From positions 663,001 to 727,000 of the forward strand of contig NZ_CP106679.1 of NCBI RefSeq assembly GCF_025502585.1: a stretch of DNA of 64,000 nt. Reading direction: 5' to 3'. Shown here piece after piece: positions 17,247 through 22,000 of the stretch; position 1 is the first letter of the stretch; every line of letters starts with the position of its first letter. Position numbers and translations under genes: made by a program. Origin of the DNA: Reichenbachiella agarivorans. GTDB lineage: Bacteria > Bacteroidota > Bacteroidia > Cytophagales > Cyclobacteriaceae. Below the pieces are notes generated by a model. It did not search any database, was not told the DNA's origin, and saw only the letters and a list, made by a program, of their open reading frames with translations.

Positions 17247-18002
17247 ATGATAGAAGTTAACCATTTGACTAAATCCTTTGACGGAAAGGTAATCCTAGAA
17301 GACATCTCTGCCAAATTTAACCAAGGTCAAACCAACCTCATCATTGGTGCTAGTGGTACTGGCAAAAGTGTCCTACTCAAAAACTTGGTCGGTCTGATCG
17401 CGCCAGATTCTGGAGAAGTCCTCTTTGATGGGAGAAATTTTACCTCCGCGGACAAAGATCTAAAAACGGATATCAGGAGAGAAATCGGCATGCTCTTTCA
17501 GGGAGGTGCATTGTTTGATTCCAAAAATGTGGAGCAAAACATCATGTTTCCTCTCGATGTCTTGACAGACATGACCAAAGAAGAAAAGCTGGAGCGCGTC
17601 AACTATTGTCTGGACCGTGTAGGTATGACTGACGTCAACAAGAAAATGCCGTCAGAAATCAGTGGAGGCATGAAAAAAAGAGTTGGTATCGCCAGGGCCA
17701 TCGTCAATCACTCCAAATATCTATTTTGTGATGAACCCAACTCTGGATTGGATCCCCAAACCTCGATCCGGATCGACAACTTGATCAAAGAAATCACCGA
17801 AGAACTCAATATCACAACTATCGTAGTGACACATGATATGAACTCAGTCATGGAGATAGGAGATAACATTATTTTCCTACACAAAGGGCACAAACTATGG
17901 GAGGGCAATAATGAAACGATATTTGATGGTGATTGCACAGAGTTGCAAGACTTTATTTTCGCCAACAAATTGATGCGGGCCGTAAAAAAGAATAGAGGTT
18001 AA
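17247..18002 (+). CDS. MlaF-family ABC transporter ATP-binding protein
   Basis: A 251-aa nucleotide-binding subunit, with Walker A GASGTGKSVLLKN, Q-loop MLFQGGALFDS, the ABC signature ISGGMKKRVGIARAI, Walker B YLFCDEPNSGLDP and the switch histidine in VVTHDMNSVME. The GALFDS sequence after the Q-loop is characteristic of the MlaF/Ttg2A family. It is co-transcribed with the permease (2-base gap). An AGAGGTTA/TAACCTCT inverted repeat spans its stop codon but has no T tract. Confidence 0.94.
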   Translation: MIEVNHLTKSFDGKVILEDISAKFNQGQTNLIIGASGTGKSVLLKNLVGLIAPDSGEVLFDGRNFTSADKDLKTDIRREIGMLFQGGALFDSKNVEQNIMFPLDVLTDMTKEEKLERVNYCLDRVGMTDVNKKMPSEISGGMKKRVGIARAIVNHSKYLFCDEPNSGLDPQTSIRIDNLIKEITEELNITTIVVTHDMNSVMEIGDNIIFLHKGHKLWEGNNETIFDGDCTELQDFIFANKLMRAVKKNRG

Positions 18003-18063
18003 CCACTGGGGGTGTAACCTCTACTCCTGAACATAATAAACCTATAATCTCTATACCAAACTT

Positions 18064-18183
18064 CTATAAAGCAAACCAATACACGCCAAGCATGGTGCAG
18101 TAAGAAATTATCATCGCCACTAACCTCTTCAATCTCCAAGGAAGATTATAGCCATTTTTAACTAGGGTAATTAAAGTTGTCAT
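18064..18183 (-). CDS. Possible 39-aa membrane microprotein
   Basis: An ATG-initiated frame encodes a basic amphipathic start (MTTLITLVKNGYNLPWRLKR), then a hydrophobic helix that ends in VYWFAL. The charge arrangement looks like a genuine small inner-membrane protein. It sits in a 405-base gap between the Mla ATPase and the DUF559 cassette that has no other gene candidate. No family is recognised and no promoter was found, so it may be a chance frame. Confidence 0.35.
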   Translation of the reverse strand: MTTLITLVKNGYNLPWRLKRLVAMIISYCTMLGVYWFAL

Positions 18184-18407
18184 AACGTTTATTAATTAGT
18201 GATATTCGAAGTACCGCATTCTAAACTGAACATCATAATTTATTATATGAACCATAATAGATACTCGATAAGTACCCAATATTCGGCAATAAACGCTTTT
18301 TGAGAGTTGATAGAGCCTCACTGATTTAAACTATCTGAATTAGAATTTATGGCATTTAACCTGAGTTCGATTCTGAAAGATGGTTCATAATACACAAGAG
18401 GACACTA

Positions 18408-18818
18408 TTAATTTGTACCCCGCTGGCGGGGGCTAGGGGGTGGAACTTGTGCATTCTTCTCGATCCAATCAGCGATGCTCTCGCGGACGTGTTCTATGTT
18501 TTGCAGCACCTCTTCGTCTCCATATCTCAACACCGTAAAACCTTCGGATCCTAGTTCCTGTGTTCTCCTTTGATCCTTAATATAAACTCCCTCATAGGAA
18601 TGTGTGATGCCATCAATTTCGATGATGAGGTTTAGTTCTTTGCACATGAAATCAGCAATGTAATCGAGTACAGGTCTTTGTCTTCTAAATTGATAGCCCT
18701 TCATCATCCTTGCTTTGAGTACGTATTTCCATATGCAGGCTTCCGCCTTGGTCATGTCTGATCTTAGTGTTTTTGCAAATGGCTGAAGCCGCTTGTTGTA
18801 ATGACTGTTGTTTTGCAT
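18408..18818 (-). CDS. DUF559 endonuclease-like protein (Vsr/restriction-like fold)
   Basis: A 136-aa protein starting MQNNSHYNKRLQPFAK. It carries the DUF559 order: AKTLRSDMTKAEACIWKYV, YQFRRQRPVLDYIADFMC, LNLIIEIDG, then GFTVLRYGDEEVLQNIE. The E/D residues of DYIADF and IIEIDG, with the QFRRQRP segment, form the PD-(D/E)XK-like centre of this family, which is related to Vsr nicking enzymes. The frame continues upstream to 18923, but that part translates the right inverted repeat, so I took the ATG at 18818. The C-terminus VPPPSPRQRGTN is translated from the left inverted repeat. The cellular role is unknown; a function in moving its own cassette is inferred from the repeats. Confidence 0.85.
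   Translation of the reverse strand: MQNNSHYNKRLQPFAKTLRSDMTKAEACIWKYVLKARMMKGYQFRRQRPVLDYIADFMCKELNLIIEIDGITHSYEGVYIKDQRRTQELGSEGFTVLRYGDEEVLQNIEHVRESIADWIEKNAQVPPPSPRQRGTN
18418..18444. repeat. Left inverted repeat of DUF559 cassette
   Basis: GC-rich 27-base unit starting CCCCGCTGGCGGGG, which is itself an interrupted palindrome. It pairs with 18854-18879 on the opposite strand, with one extra C here. Confidence 0.85.
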
Positions 18819-18853
18819 TGGGTTGGGTTTTAGTAGCTTCAATTTACGAAAAA

Positions 18854-18879
18854 TCCACCCCCTACCCCCGCCAGCGGGG
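18854..18879. repeat. Right inverted repeat of DUF559 cassette
   Basis: 26-base inverse copy of the unit at 18418-18444, ending CCAGCGGGG. Confidence 0.85.
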
Positions 18880-18962
18880 GAAATCGTTTGAATTGATTGG
18901 TTTTGATCGTAACCTGAGTTCAATTCTGAAAAAGGGCAAAATTAAAATCAACATTGATCCAA

Positions 18963-18994
18963 AGGACAGAAAGGCCCTTCAAGGGTTTTCTGTC
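18963..18994 (-). terminator. Hairpin downstream of the 1164-aa outer-membrane gene
   Basis: GGACAGAAA (18963-18971) pairs with TTTCTGTCC (18986-18994), and CCCTT with AAGGG inside. It begins 24 bases after the minus-strand stop. The tail is only weakly T-rich, so termination strength is uncertain. Confidence 0.5.
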
Positions 18995-19017
18995 CAGATC
19001 ATAGACAAAACGAATGG

Positions 19018-22000
19018 TTAAAAAAGGGCCGTTACTTGCATCCGTCCCATGTGGATGGCATCACTGGTGGCTGATTTCCTTCCCTCATATCCGAGGCTAA
19101 GTTGCAGGCCTGCAATCAGTTTTTGACTGTAGCTCAGTTGCCAAGTATAGTTGTCTCCGGGCTGGAGTGCATTGAGCAGTTCGTAGGCCGCAGCGGTATC
19201 GATATCACCATCAAAATCAATCTTCGTATAAGCAAAATTGGCTGTCAGTGCATTTTGGGAACCATTGGACCAGCGAGTTTCTGATTTGATACCGTTGAGA
19301 GACGAGTTTTCTTTGTCTGTCCCCTCTTGGAGGTTGACCTTGCTCGTATAATTATAGGTCAGCGTTTGACGAAAATTGTTTTTAGGCTGCCAGACTATGC
19401 CTGGTGACAACTCATGCGTTTGGATGAGGTAATTCCTGTCTTCCTGAAACTGCGAAGCATTTTGTTTGAGTTTGTCTCCCAAAGCCAATACCAACATCCA
19501 CTCGCTACCCAAGTGATAGCGGATGTTTGATACCCAATCCTTAGAATGTCTCGATTCAATCCCTCGTGAGATTAGCTGCTTAGAATTGCTCGATGCATAG
19601 GTCACATCCAATCCCAAGCCCTTACCGCTGCGGTTATAAAACATGGTACTGCGTACACCATCGCGCAGATAGACAATATTGACATCATCGATCTCCAATG
19701 TGAATGGATTGAACCTCGAATCAAACGAATCATCAGTAGTCTTTTTGTTGATATTGATACTTGAATTGTTGGAGAACTTGCTCAGCCAACCTTTGAATCC
19801 AGAAGCACCCTGCCAAGACTTGGGCATGGTAAAGTTTAGACTGAAAGTAAAAATCGTGTTGAACGCATCCACAAACTCGCTGGTGGGGACAAACACCTTG
19901 ATGTAGTTTCTCTCATCAAAATTGATAGCCTCAAAAAACTCAGTCAAATCCTGTATTCCATCTTTGTTTAAATCACGCCATGTATGTGTTCCCTCTCCAG
20001 TAGCAACCTGGACGTAAATAAATTCTCTCAAAATCTCCCTGCTGCTGGACGTAGTGTAGGACAAATCCGTTCGTATTTGATTCTTGAAGAAACTCCCTCT
20101 ATAATTGAGGTTTCCTAATATCAAATTTTCATCCTCCAATGCCAAAGAATCTACCTGATAAGCCAGTGTCCTGTAGGTGAAATTGACTCCCAAGTCTTGC
20201 CCTTTGGCAAAACTACTGGTGACTTGTGCCCTAGCTGTTTTGGACAAGCTATAGGGCAAGAGCTCCCCTTCTACAATGGCGTTGTCTTCTCGCAAGGTAT
20301 AGTCGACCCTATACCTGGTCTTCAGAGTATCATTGCTCCTGAGATAGAGCTGATGTGAGGCATAATTCATCGCCGTACTGAGCAATGAATCTGTATGGGC
20401 GTTGCTGATTATATTTCTATCGGATTCAAAACGATAACCAGGCACAACAAAAAACGGATCAAAAAATGCTTCGCCGTACCACCGCTTCCATCTGGATTTT
20501 TCTGTCCAACTCTCATTTTCCAAATCAAAGTAGCCTCCTGACAATTTCAACCCAGCCATACTTTTCTTTAGCTCTGTATCAATCTGATAGCCATCAATCA
20601 CATGTTCCTTTTGTCGATGTGATACATTGGCTCGGAGCAGGTTGTATTGATTTTTTTCTGCCAACAATGCCACATTGGCTATATGGTCACTCGTATGAAA
20701 AGTGTCCGCTGTAGGATTGTAACTCCAGTTGCGGTCGTACTCTATGCTCCTGTAGCGGTCAATGGGCTTAAAGTCTCCCCCATCATATTCATAATCCATG
20801 GTAGCAGACAGCGTATACCCAGATGATCCAATAGGCTTTTTACTCAGTTTCAATCCCGATTTGAAAGCCCAGTCCATGTTGTCCTCATTGTCTAGGTCTG
20901 AATACAAGTTTTTGTCCTGATTGGAAAATGCTGCTTCAGTAAACCAAGTCATGTGTTTGCCCAATTTCACATCTGCCCCTAGCATCAATAGCTCCTTTTG
21001 GTTGGGAGCAGGAACGAAACGAACCGCGGCATATTCGCCTTGTTGCGTACCCGAGATGGGAGAAAGCCATTCGTACACTCTGCCGTTGACATCATTTTGT
21101 ACCACTGCATAATCCCCCTCGCCGAGCCCAACATTGGAATAGGTCACACGATACAAAGTGACTGTGGAGTCTCGTGAGTACACAAAGATGGATTGAGGAT
21201 TGCCGTCTATATCTACAGTATCCCGCTGCTCATAGAGTACCAAATCGGGATTATAAGCCGCATCCACAGCACCTGGGATAGGAATGGGTAATTGGTCATC
21301 AGTAGCCCAACTCATCTGCTCCTGATCCGCTGCAGTCAGGGTAAAGGCCAATGGCTTGTTGCGGTTGTCTTTCTCTCGATAGTATCCAGCTCGGACAGTC
21401 GTCCGCCCTAGCTCGATTTCTTGCTGTGCTGCGATGATTGATCGGCTATAGTTCTGATCAGAATATTCGAAAGTCACCCGAATTCTCGAAAACTGCGTAA
21501 TCAGCACACTCGGGTTGAATGTAACCTCTCCCAAATTGTAATCAATCACATAGTCATGGTTAAAGCCTCGCTTGAGCAACTGCCCATCCAAATACACACT
21601 CTCTGAGTTGGCCAATACGACCACAAAACGCTGACCGTCTGGCCCTGATAACTGGTAGGGGCCTTGGAGTCCTTCCTCAGCTTTGACTGTGATATCAGCA
21701 AACTGCCCTTTGGCAGCTGCTATAGCCAGGGTACTTGATGCTTTGTGCTTGTCATTGACACGGTAGTTTATCTTGGCCTGTCCTCCCAGTGCATTTTTGT
21801 AATGTCGCAAAAAGTATGAGTTACCATTGCGCAGCACCACATCCCCAGCCAAGACTGACAAATTCTCATTGTAGATTTCGAAAGTCACATTGTCAAATTC
21901 TCTGACTTGTTGGGTATTTCCTTCTGGCTGAAAAGGCACATTTTGATCCGTGATATCCGCTCTGATATTCAACTCCTCCGTCAACTTGCCTTCCATCTGA

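What the first reader, a model, noticed from the sequence alone, without database searches (positions are those of the whole stretch)
18358..18931. DUF559 endonuclease inside nested inverted and direct repeats
The gene is flanked by near-perfect 26-base inverted repeats and, outside them, by 21-base direct repeats with one mismatch. The repeats form part of the endonuclease reading frame (C-terminal PPPSPRQRG). This fits a small element that is moved or maintained by its own DUF559 nuclease, a class that is not well described.
Basis: partly seen in the sequence, partly recalled or inferred. Interest (0 to 1): 0.75.

Follow-up and report, generated by a model that had tools for sequence, protein, structure and literature searches.

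The report
Nuclease genes bracketed by triplex-forming repeats
A small nuclease gene sits between two copies of a hairpin repeat predicted to fold into a triple-stranded DNA knot; the same pairing recurs in several bacterial phyla and beside a gene of laboratory E. coli, so it offers a candidate enzyme for a repeat family whose origin was unexplained.

Summary
The window's 136-aa DUF559 (PF04480) gene lies between the only two class II intrastrand-triplex motifs my finder saw in 64 kb: a hairpin, a short linker, and a tag mirroring the hairpin's purine arm in triplex code (G to G, A to A/T, C to T). About 710 bp are absent beside the same downstream gene in 7 of 7 other species of the genus, 6 of which keep both neighbours. 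The outer direct repeats are unrelated MITE ends.

Such motifs face the gene on at least one side in 88 of 167 deduplicated, mostly Bacteroidota DUF559 loci (control positions 7 of 552), and in 16 of 19 new loci of another phylum (controls 0 of 38). Repeat type follows the protein tree. In two species a DUF559 insert with repeats sits in frame inside leucyl-tRNA synthetase, at two different places, where same-genus relatives have none. E. coli K-12 ycjD is DUF559 with a published TM_ECO repeat nearby.

Best reading: DUF559 is the cognate nuclease of triplex repeats, like RAYT and REP. Cleavage is inferred.

The parts
18408..18818 (-). DUF559 (PF04480) nuclease gene, 136 aa from the ATG at 18816-18818; the open frame runs on to 18923 with a TTG start
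   Evidence: ORF; PF04480 E 1.5e-31; conserved RRQRP...YIADFMCKEL..IE.DG.TH; PDB 3hrl E 7.4e-27, 3r3p E 9.3e-7
18418..18444 (+). left class II intrastrand-triplex repeat: hairpin CCCCGCTGGCGGGG(G), linker, tag GGGGGTGGA facing the gene; overlaps the codons for PPPSPRQRG
18854..18880 (-). right class II intrastrand-triplex repeat: on the minus strand CCCCCGCTGGCGGGGG, linker TA, tag GGGGGTGGA facing the gene; upstream of the ATG
18405..18909 (.). stretch shared with the second genomic copy (86% identity): nuclease gene, both repeats and short flanks outside them
   Evidence: (query 156-659 against G000:C1:3328683-3329192)
18357..18404 (+). left end of a MITE (terminal repeat AACCTGAGTTCGATT), a fragment
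18910..19021 (+). second MITE copy, same orientation, its far end missing
18304..19017 (.). lineage-specific insertion of about 710 bp between an ABC-transporter ATPase gene and a large surface-protein-like gene (ends approximate)
   Evidence: gap 1021 bp here, 255-309 bp in the six relatives that keep both neighbours

Best explanation
Standalone DUF559 proteins (Vsr/PD-(D/E)XK-like nucleases) are the cognate enzymes of bacterial class II intrastrand-triplex repeats (PIT, BoxC, TM). The mobile unit is the nuclease gene between inverted copies of the repeat, most often with the third-strand tags facing the gene. When the DNA is single-stranded (inferred: at replication forks or during repair), each repeat folds into a hairpin whose tag lies back along the purine arm. 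The nuclease recognises and nicks at that structure (inferred), and repair or strand transfer copies the unit, or the bare repeats, to new places (inferred). Solitary repeats and inverted pairs would be the non-autonomous offspring, as REPs and REPINs are of RAYTs. SHOWN by sequence: the architecture, mirror covariation, multiple copies, protein-repeat co-inheritance, presence or absence between relatives, and in-frame inserts in leuS absent from same-genus relatives. INFERRED: binding, nicking, mobility by this enzyme, triplex formation in the cell. In the window itself the unit sits amid MITE pieces and may have reached this site with a MITE.
For: (1) Flanks. Inverted-repeat score of at least 13: 42 of 92 family loci against 4 of 352 shifted positions; 40 of 80 against 3 of 391 (these sets hold a few duplicates, see Tried and rejected). 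Strict motif facing the gene, duplicates removed: at least one side 88 of 167 against 7 of 552, both sides 39 of 167 against 0 of 552. Second phylum, criteria already fixed: 17 of 20 and both 9 of 20 against 0 of 38; one of the 20 (L264) had been in the first set as L203, so 16 of 19 are new. No motif in the ten fetched loci of eleven weak, fragment or long-frame matches of that search. (2) Mirror rule, positions after the G-run: 337 of 368; G to G 145 of 158; A to A 64 or T 67 of 143; C to T 61 of 64; before removing duplicates 339 of 370, with 0 of 20,000 permutations of distinct combinations as high. Further loci: 160 of 182, A to A/T 68 of 72, A to G never, 0 of 10,000. (3) Both arms of one gene are of the same type in 34 of 41 loci, shuffled mean 11. 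Type on the protein tree: 21 changes against 42.4 shuffled, 0 of 200 as low. The GC type occurs with this protein subfamily in Bacteroidota, Planctomycetota and Deltaproteobacteria. (4) Genome-wide: the TCC-type repeat occurs in 20 of 148 family genomes, 18 with a strong DUF559 match (76 of 148 overall; Fisher 1.3e-4); 101 of 105 copies are in those genomes; 84 of 105 are away from listed DUF559 hits, four inverted pairs among them. (5) leuS: in G137 (600 bp between conserved motifs against 99 and 120 bp in same-genus G017 and G094) and, at another place, in G065 (522 bp against 78 bp in same-genus G122) a DUF559 insert with repeat arms is in frame. In G137 a stretch with a repeat (TCCCCCTCTCTTTTGGAGAGGGG ... 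TGAGGTCATTA) stands on both sides of the insert, as if the target had been a repeat. (6) E. coli K-12 ycjD is DUF559 with TM_ECO about 165 bp away. (7) Window insertion missing in the genus relatives. (8) A PDB relative by sequence is a 'mobile intron protein'.
Against: No call shows binding, cutting or movement by the protein. In the window the insertion is tangled with MITE pieces, and at L114 a decayed unit lies inside a MITE with a 3-bp duplication, so another transposase can carry the unit. 79 of 167 loci show no strict motif facing the gene, and 47 motifs face outward against 134 inward. Of 16 loci in long open frames (350 aa or more) only 4 have a strict inward motif. In the further set C to T holds for only 1 of 4 C positions. 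Motif-bearing genomes without a strong DUF559 match exist: G124 and G086 (TCC type), G083 (GC type). In E. coli the repeat beside ycjD is on one side only and faces outward, and the copy-number difference is confounded by phylogroup. PMC4666352 reports that its in vivo footprinting did not support a stable triplex.
Confidence: 0.7

Rival explanations
1. DUF559 is a Vsr-type mismatch-repair nuclease serving a solitary cytosine methyltransferase, as proposed for Caulobacter VsrA, and the repeats beside it are incidental.
For: In Caulobacter the SOS response of cells lacking the methyltransferase ScmA depends on the DUF559 protein VsrA (PMC12907096, passages read). Sequence relatives are endonuclease-like.
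Against: The window's genome has no C5 DNA methylase match (PF00145, 0 of 1; the same search rings in 10 of 14 control genomes), yet has three strong DUF559 matches. Repair does not explain paired repeats, their mirror code, the match between repeat type and protein lineage, or inserts inside leuS.
Confidence: 0.09
2. The repeats are moved by some other enzyme or are fold-back terminators, and DUF559 genes merely land in them because they are permissive spots.
For: Most repeats lie away from listed DUF559 hits (84 of 105). Some genomes have repeats but no strong DUF559 match. MITE carriage is seen at L114. The G137 leuS insert looks as if it landed at a repeat.
Against: Repeat type tracks the protein tree, both arms agree in type, tags mostly face the gene (134 inward, 47 outward), and similar protein-repeat pairs recur across phyla. 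A chance landing predicts none of these.
Confidence: 0.12
3. A structure-specific caretaker: the nuclease removes or repairs hairpin-triplex knots that stall replication, and keeps the repeats as a dependency rather than moving them.
For: The repeats are predicted hairpin-triplex formers, and TM_ECO loci are unstable in E. coli (PMC4666352). vsrA belongs to the DNA-damage-inducible genes of Caulobacter; a DUF559 gene, DR_0221, is up in a Deinococcus cytosine-methyltransferase mutant (PMC6712171, one passage).
Against: It does not explain why the gene itself is bracketed by inverted copies, why units form tandem arrays and shortened derivatives, or why units come and go between relatives, even inside leuS.
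Confidence: 0.09

Closest known systems
Intrastrand-triplex repeats: PIT / BoxC / TM_ECO (Holder et al. 2015, PMC4666352)
   Same: Class II layout: C-rich stem, loop, G-rich stem, short loop, G-rich third strand. DUF559 flanks at L243 and L246 fit the published TM_ECO pattern exactly, those at S. meliloti pSymB (L237) and Lelliottia (L241) nearly (judged by eye). Five close inverted pairs among 23 K-12 copies (paper, section 18).
   Different: The sections I read report no link to mobility genes or to a class of flanking genes; the words endonuclease, nuclease and DUF have 0 hits in the main text. The window's GC type has a shorter stem with a C-to-T step.
RAYT (TnpA-REP) with REP / REPIN (PMC3116915, passages read)
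   Same: Gene next to or between inverted short palindromes, dispersed solitary repeats, inverted pairs, repeat types that go with enzyme lineages.
   Different: The enzyme matches DUF559, not a Y1/HUH transposase, and the repeat carries a mirror third strand.
Caulobacter VsrA (DUF559, PMC12907096)
   Same: Same domain, Vsr-like.
   Different: Studied as a functional partner of a cytosine methyltransferase; no such repeats in the passages read. The window's genome has no C5 methylase match.
Mobile-intron (homing) nuclease, PDB 3r3p
   Same: Sequence similarity over profile positions 64-119 (E 9.3e-7); a nuclease of a selfish element.
   Different: No intron or intein recognised here; the gene is free-standing between repeats, or in frame inside a host gene without known splicing.
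Rickettsia palindromic elements (recalled, no call)
   Same: Palindromic repeats inserted in frame within host proteins.
   Different: Here the in-frame insert also encodes a nuclease.

Membership tests
DUF559 (PF04480) | profile match above the curated cut-off | tested here: met
   109 bits against cut-off 20.6
Class II intrastrand-triplex repeat (PIT/TM) | C-rich stem, loop, purine stem, short linker, third strand that mirrors the purine stem in triplex code | tested here: met
   both window arms, with the C-to-T step allowed; rule tested on 153 repeats (152 after duplicates) and 38 further ones
Class II intrastrand-triplex repeat (PIT/TM) | forms a triplex in solution | not testable with these tools
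   reported for the TM_ECO sequence in PMC4666352, not for the window's repeat
Class II intrastrand-triplex repeat (PIT/TM) | many copies in its genome | tested here: inconclusive
   5 exact GC-type copies in the window's genome; up to 25 in another genome (G157)
RAYT / REPIN | Y1/HUH transposase domain | tested here: not met
   Pfam finds DUF559 and a sub-threshold MTES_1575 only
RAYT / REPIN | GTAG-type tetranucleotide at the foot of the palindrome | not tested
   GTAG as a REP tag is known from the listing of PMC3733652; commonest linkers here are TA, TTA, CA and CTA, no formal comparison
Vsr / VSP repair | works with a cytosine-5 methyltransferase of the genome | tested here: not met
   PF00145: 0 matches in the whole genome
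Classical IS or MITE | terminal inverted repeats with target-site duplication for the nuclease unit itself | tested here: inconclusive
   matching 3-bp flanks by eye in 6 of 14 MITE-end pairings incl. L114; a longer direct duplication around the G137 leuS insert, origin unclear
Homing endonuclease | nuclease encoded in an intron or intein, or inserted in its own cut site | tested here: inconclusive
   in-frame inserts in leuS without recognised intron or intein; cut site unknown

The most novel reading that the evidence does not exclude
A previously unrecognised, widespread class of mobile repeat system: a nuclease that reads a DNA triple helix. DUF559 proteins would recognise single-stranded hairpins by the shape or code of an intrastrand triplex, nick them and spread the gene and its bare repeats, sometimes in frame into essential genes such as leuS. 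They would be the source of the PIT/BoxC/TM repeats of E. coli and many other genomes. Nuclease and triplex code would evolve together, giving lineage-specific codes.
Probability: 0.52. Interest if true: 0.93.

Novelty: new variant of a known kind. Interest (0 to 1): 0.86.

Why it matters
Intrastrand-triplex repeats have been known in E. coli since the 1990s, fold into stable triplexes in vitro and mark unstable sites, yet the 2015 survey reports no mobility gene near them and leaves their spread open. The link to DUF559, including ycjD of E. coli K-12, makes their origin testable in a laboratory strain. It suggests a role for a widespread domain of unknown function, and it would be a second, unrelated invention of the REP and RAYT way of life, in which covariation points to triple-helix pairing as a functional constraint in bacterial DNA.

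Tried and rejected
Considered and rejected: (a) the outer direct repeats as target-site duplication of the DUF559 unit. The left copy stays homologous to the MITE beyond the direct repeat (to 18404), and the family has many copies elsewhere. (b) A known RNA motif: Rfam gives 0 matches up to E 1 over 17900-19200. (c) A phage gene: no relative in a viral-contig scan with the single protein, which reaches close relatives only; 2 of 50,697 phage records with distant matches. (d) VSP repair as sole role. (e) A plain terminator: does not explain tags, pairs or dispersed copies.

Led nowhere: structure prediction (queue full each time). TM_ECO copies could not be counted in E. coli records with the genome search, so the copy-number comparison rests on 59 of the 60 sampled rows (H58, a partial record, dropped).

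Limits: the strict motif finder was written after seeing the first two sets; the set is the cleaner test. keep them within or between the two sets, (both sides 88 of 170 against 2 of 561; at least one side 152 of 170 against 31 of 561) still holds L153, L181 and L187, still hold L153 and L187; one search is deduplicated. L016 (partial hit) was dropped from then on. 6 of 87 typed loci with more than one stop in the translated stretch were left out of the tree. From I took 92 loci, mainly the best-scoring, not all places listed; some near contig ends were skipped. In some searches minus-strand loci of L013-L045 were not turned; this only swaps sides, and was corrected from then on. Control positions are shifted places in the same loci. 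Long-frame DUF559 loci were looked up for 9 frames: 8 of 9 carry another Pfam domain; empty alleles were compared only for leuS. The odds were raised slightly after the leuS result (best explanation 0.68 to 0.7, novel case 0.5 to 0.52).

Full report
WHAT IS THERE. The ORF 18408-18923(-) matches PF04480 (DUF559) at E 1.5e-31. Comparison with relatives puts the likely start at the ATG at 18816-18818, giving 136 aa. Two inverted copies of a short repeat bracket it at 18418-18444 and 18854-18880. Each is a hairpin (C-rich arm, loop, G-rich arm), a short linker and a second G-rich stretch, GGGGGTGGA, that faces the gene. The left arm is translated as PPPSPRQRG at the C-terminus. A finder for this full motif sees exactly these two in the 64-kb window.

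THE OUTER REPEATS ARE SOMETHING ELSE. The outer direct repeats are left ends of a MITE family with ends AACCTGAGTTCGATT and its inverse. In the stretches read, end pairs lie 81 to 386 bp apart (one alternative pairing 558), and by eye 6 of 14 pairings have matching 3-bp flanks (ATA twice, AAT, AGA, CAA, AAG). There are 34 end matches in the genome against 0 for the reversed pattern, and 29 in one relative, G148. At genome position 1007566 (L114) a 291-bp MITE with an AAG duplication holds pieces of the nuclease unit with one repeat arm. So in this genome the unit has been inside a MITE, and the window insertion may have come that way.

EMPTY SITES AND COPIES. The ABC-ATPase gene and the large gene to the right stay neighbours in 6 of 7 other species of the genus, with a gap of 255-309 bp against 1021 bp here; in the seventh (L112) the upstream gene was not found nearby and no related insert is seen. 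In the window's genome a second DUF559 gene (86% DNA identity) sits in a tandem array with shortened derivatives (L002). A pair of arms without an intact gene lies at 3473029 (L012). A third strong DUF559 match has different, 42-bp arms and lies in frame within a 782-aa frame that also holds a type I restriction specificity domain (L015). A fourth, partial hit (L016) lies in a 1462-aa frame.

HOW GENERAL. Among 148 genomes of the family, 98 have a DUF559 match, 76 of them with best E below 1e-9. Of 92 loci analysed, 42 have an inverted-repeat score of at least 13 against 4 of 352 shifted positions. Of 80 loci with named organisms found by protein similarity (best 80 of 120), 40 score so against 3 of 391; they come mostly from Bacteroidota but also from Planctomycetota (Scalindua, Brocadia, Kuenenia), Deltaproteobacteria, Chlorobiota, Ignavibacteriae and KSB1. 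With duplicates removed, the strict motif faces the gene on at least one side in 88 of 167 loci against 7 of 552 control positions, on both sides in 39 of 167 against 0 of 552; motifs face inward 134 times and outward 47 times. As a test with fixed criteria I searched 59 genomes of the phylum of G194 (a Smithellaceae MAG): 20 strong DUF559 matches, 17 with at least one motif facing the gene and 9 with both, against 0 of 38 control positions; one of the 20 (L264) repeats L203 of the earlier set, so 16 of 19 are new. Ten fetched of eleven weak matches of that search (fragments or long frames) held no motif. Nine plasmid-collection loci were read by eye: S. meliloti pSymB, Pseudanabaena, Photobacterium, Picosynechococcus, Sphingomonas and Lelliottia show the motif on one or both sides; Deinococcus shows it facing outward; Synechocystis is doubtful; Azospirillum shows none.

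THE MIRROR RULE. The tag is not a copy of an arm but its mirror image, in the code of a purine-motif triplex: over G comes G, over A comes A or T, over a C interruption mostly T. Examples of mirrored arm and tag: GGGGGCGG/GGGGGTGG (window type), GGGGGAGG/GGGGGAGG, GGGGAGGG/GGGGTGGG, GGGGAGAG/GGGGTGTG, GGGAAGAG/GGGATGAG, GGGAGAGGGG/GGGTGAGGGG. Counting only stem positions after the G-run (at most five per repeat), 337 of 368 obey and 135 of 152 repeats obey fully. Among distinct combinations no permutation of 20,000 did as well (before removal of duplicates). Further loci (20 and 9 plasmid loci; 38 repeats from 21 of the 29) give 160 of 182, and 0 of 10,000; there only 1 of 4 C positions has T. 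Mirror symmetry is not made by simple duplication or inversion of DNA, so I read it as selection on triple-strand pairing, or on a guide-like contact of the same geometry inside the protein.

PROTEIN AND REPEAT GO TOGETHER. Where both arms could be typed they agree in 34 of 41 loci, shuffled mean 11 and maximum 20. On a tree of 81 DUF559 domains the repeat type needs 21 changes, shuffled mean 42.4, 0 of 200 as low; many forks are poorly resolved, and near-copies contribute. The TCC-type repeat occurs in 20 of 148 family genomes; 18 of these have a strong DUF559 match, where 76 of 148 do overall (Fisher 1.3e-4), and 101 of 105 copies lie in them. The GC type occurs in 8 genomes, 7 with a strong match, p 0.04. 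Exceptions are G124, G086 and G083. Of 105 TCC copies, 21 lie within 400 bp of a listed DUF559 hit (11 genes) and 84 are elsewhere, among them four close inverted pairs and one direct pair.

INSERTS INSIDE HOST GENES. In 16 of 167 loci the DUF559 domain lies in an open frame of 350 aa or more. Of 9 frames searched, 8 hold another Pfam domain: leucyl-tRNA synthetase (L024, L048), Eco57I-type methylase (L054, L061, one genus), type I restriction R and S subunits (L078, L015), a type ISP protein (L084), and an N-formylglutamate amidohydrolase followed by DUF559 (L039). In restriction genes DUF559 might be a native domain; I compared no empty alleles there. For leuS I did: G137 has 600 bp where same-genus G017 and G094 have 99 and 120 bp between the same conserved motifs, and G065 has, at a different place, 522 bp where same-genus G122 has 78 bp. 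Both inserts are in frame and carry hairpin repeat arms at their edges, with tags facing outward where readable. In G137 a repeat with its neighbouring TGAGGTCATTA stands on both sides of the insert. So DUF559-repeat inserts come and go without MITE pieces, and may land at repeats.

LITERATURE AND E. COLI. The repeats match published intrastrand-triplex motifs (PIT, BoxC, TM_ECO). Of PMC4666352 I read the abstract, sections 15, 16 and 18, the first parts of sections 3 and 20, and find-passages. It reports TM_ECO 3610 times in 262 proteobacterial genomes, a stable triplex in vitro, no support for a stable triplex in vivo, instability at the sites, and no mobility genes near them; endonuclease, nuclease and DUF have 0 hits in its main text. 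Searches of the held library: DUF559 alone 14 papers (listing; passages read in two), DUF559 with inverted repeats 0, DUF559 with triplex 0, 'endonuclease domain-containing protein' with 'extragenic palindromic' 0. Most subscription journals are not held. In E. coli K-12 MG1655 the DUF559 gene is ycjD, and a TM_ECO motif lies about 165 bp downstream, facing outward. In E. coli, 3364 of 5426 genomes hold a place covering at least 80% of a ycjD-plus-TM query. In 60 sampled rows (one partial record dropped) records with such a place have a median of 22 matching places (14-30, n 36) and records without 10 (2-23, n 23). The difference is strong but confounded by phylogroup. In nine of ten fetched records sampled as lacking the gene there, fabI is followed by a TetR/efflux cluster; the tenth shows another locus.

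MECHANISM. PDB relatives by sequence are 3hrl (endonuclease-like protein, E 7.4e-27), 3r3p (mobile intron protein, E 9.3e-7, partial) and weakly PvuRts1I (0.01). This fits a Vsr-like nuclease that could nick hairpin DNA. I propose that it acts on the hairpin-triplex in single-stranded DNA and that repair or strand transfer spreads unit and repeats. The window's genome has no C5 methylase match, which speaks against a Vsr-and-methylase partnership here. PMC12907096 (passages) reports that a DUF559 protein is needed for the DNA-damage response of a Caulobacter methyltransferase mutant.

STANDING. Each part was known: DUF559, triplex repeats, and the RAYT and REP style of life (PMC3116915, passages). 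The link, the gene-centred architecture, the co-inheritance and the in-frame inserts are new as far as the searches above show. It works like RAYT and REP but is not a member: the enzyme domain test is not met.

Noticed in passing
window 18357-18404 and 18910-19021; L114, L117-L131: A MITE family with ends AACCTGAGTTCGATT and 3-bp duplications in some copies, dozens of end matches here and in G148; no transposase-bearing copy was recognised.
   Followed up: partly
L272 (G137 leuS), L048 (G065 leuS): DUF559 inserts in frame inside leucyl-tRNA synthetase at two different places, giving enlarged synthetase frames (1174 and 1078 aa); whether the protein is processed is unknown.
   Followed up: partly
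L015, L054, L061, L078, L084: DUF559 domains in frame within restriction-modification genes (HsdS, Eco57I-type, HsdR, type ISP), some flanked by inverted repeats; could be inserts or native domains.
   Followed up: partly
L015 (genome 2948976-2949278): 42-bp inverted repeats in which the linker between hairpin and tag is itself a small hairpin (TGCCCGCAGGGC); the tag still fits the triplex code by eye.
   Followed up: partly
L002 1140-1230 and L012 near 1850: Tandem AACCCGCGCGGGTTT palindromes beside two of the nuclease-repeat clusters.
   Followed up: no
L002 550-860: Degenerate tandem repeat (GCGAGTCTTCGTGA... / GCGAGACTTAGTG...) beside the second nuclease copy.
   Followed up: no
L212 5258-5305: Long inverted repeat (CACCTCATTCTGACAAGATT...) between ycjD and sapF in E. 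coli K-12; also a partial hairpin repeat overlapping the 3' end of ycjD.
   Followed up: no
L213 and L223-L231: ycjD is split by an IS1 in E. coli ETEC6; in nine sampled strains the place after fabI holds a TetR/efflux cluster instead.
   Followed up: partly
L090: DUF559 gene flanked by a 62-bp inverted repeat that extends beyond the hairpins, perhaps the trace of a recent duplication.
   Followed up: no
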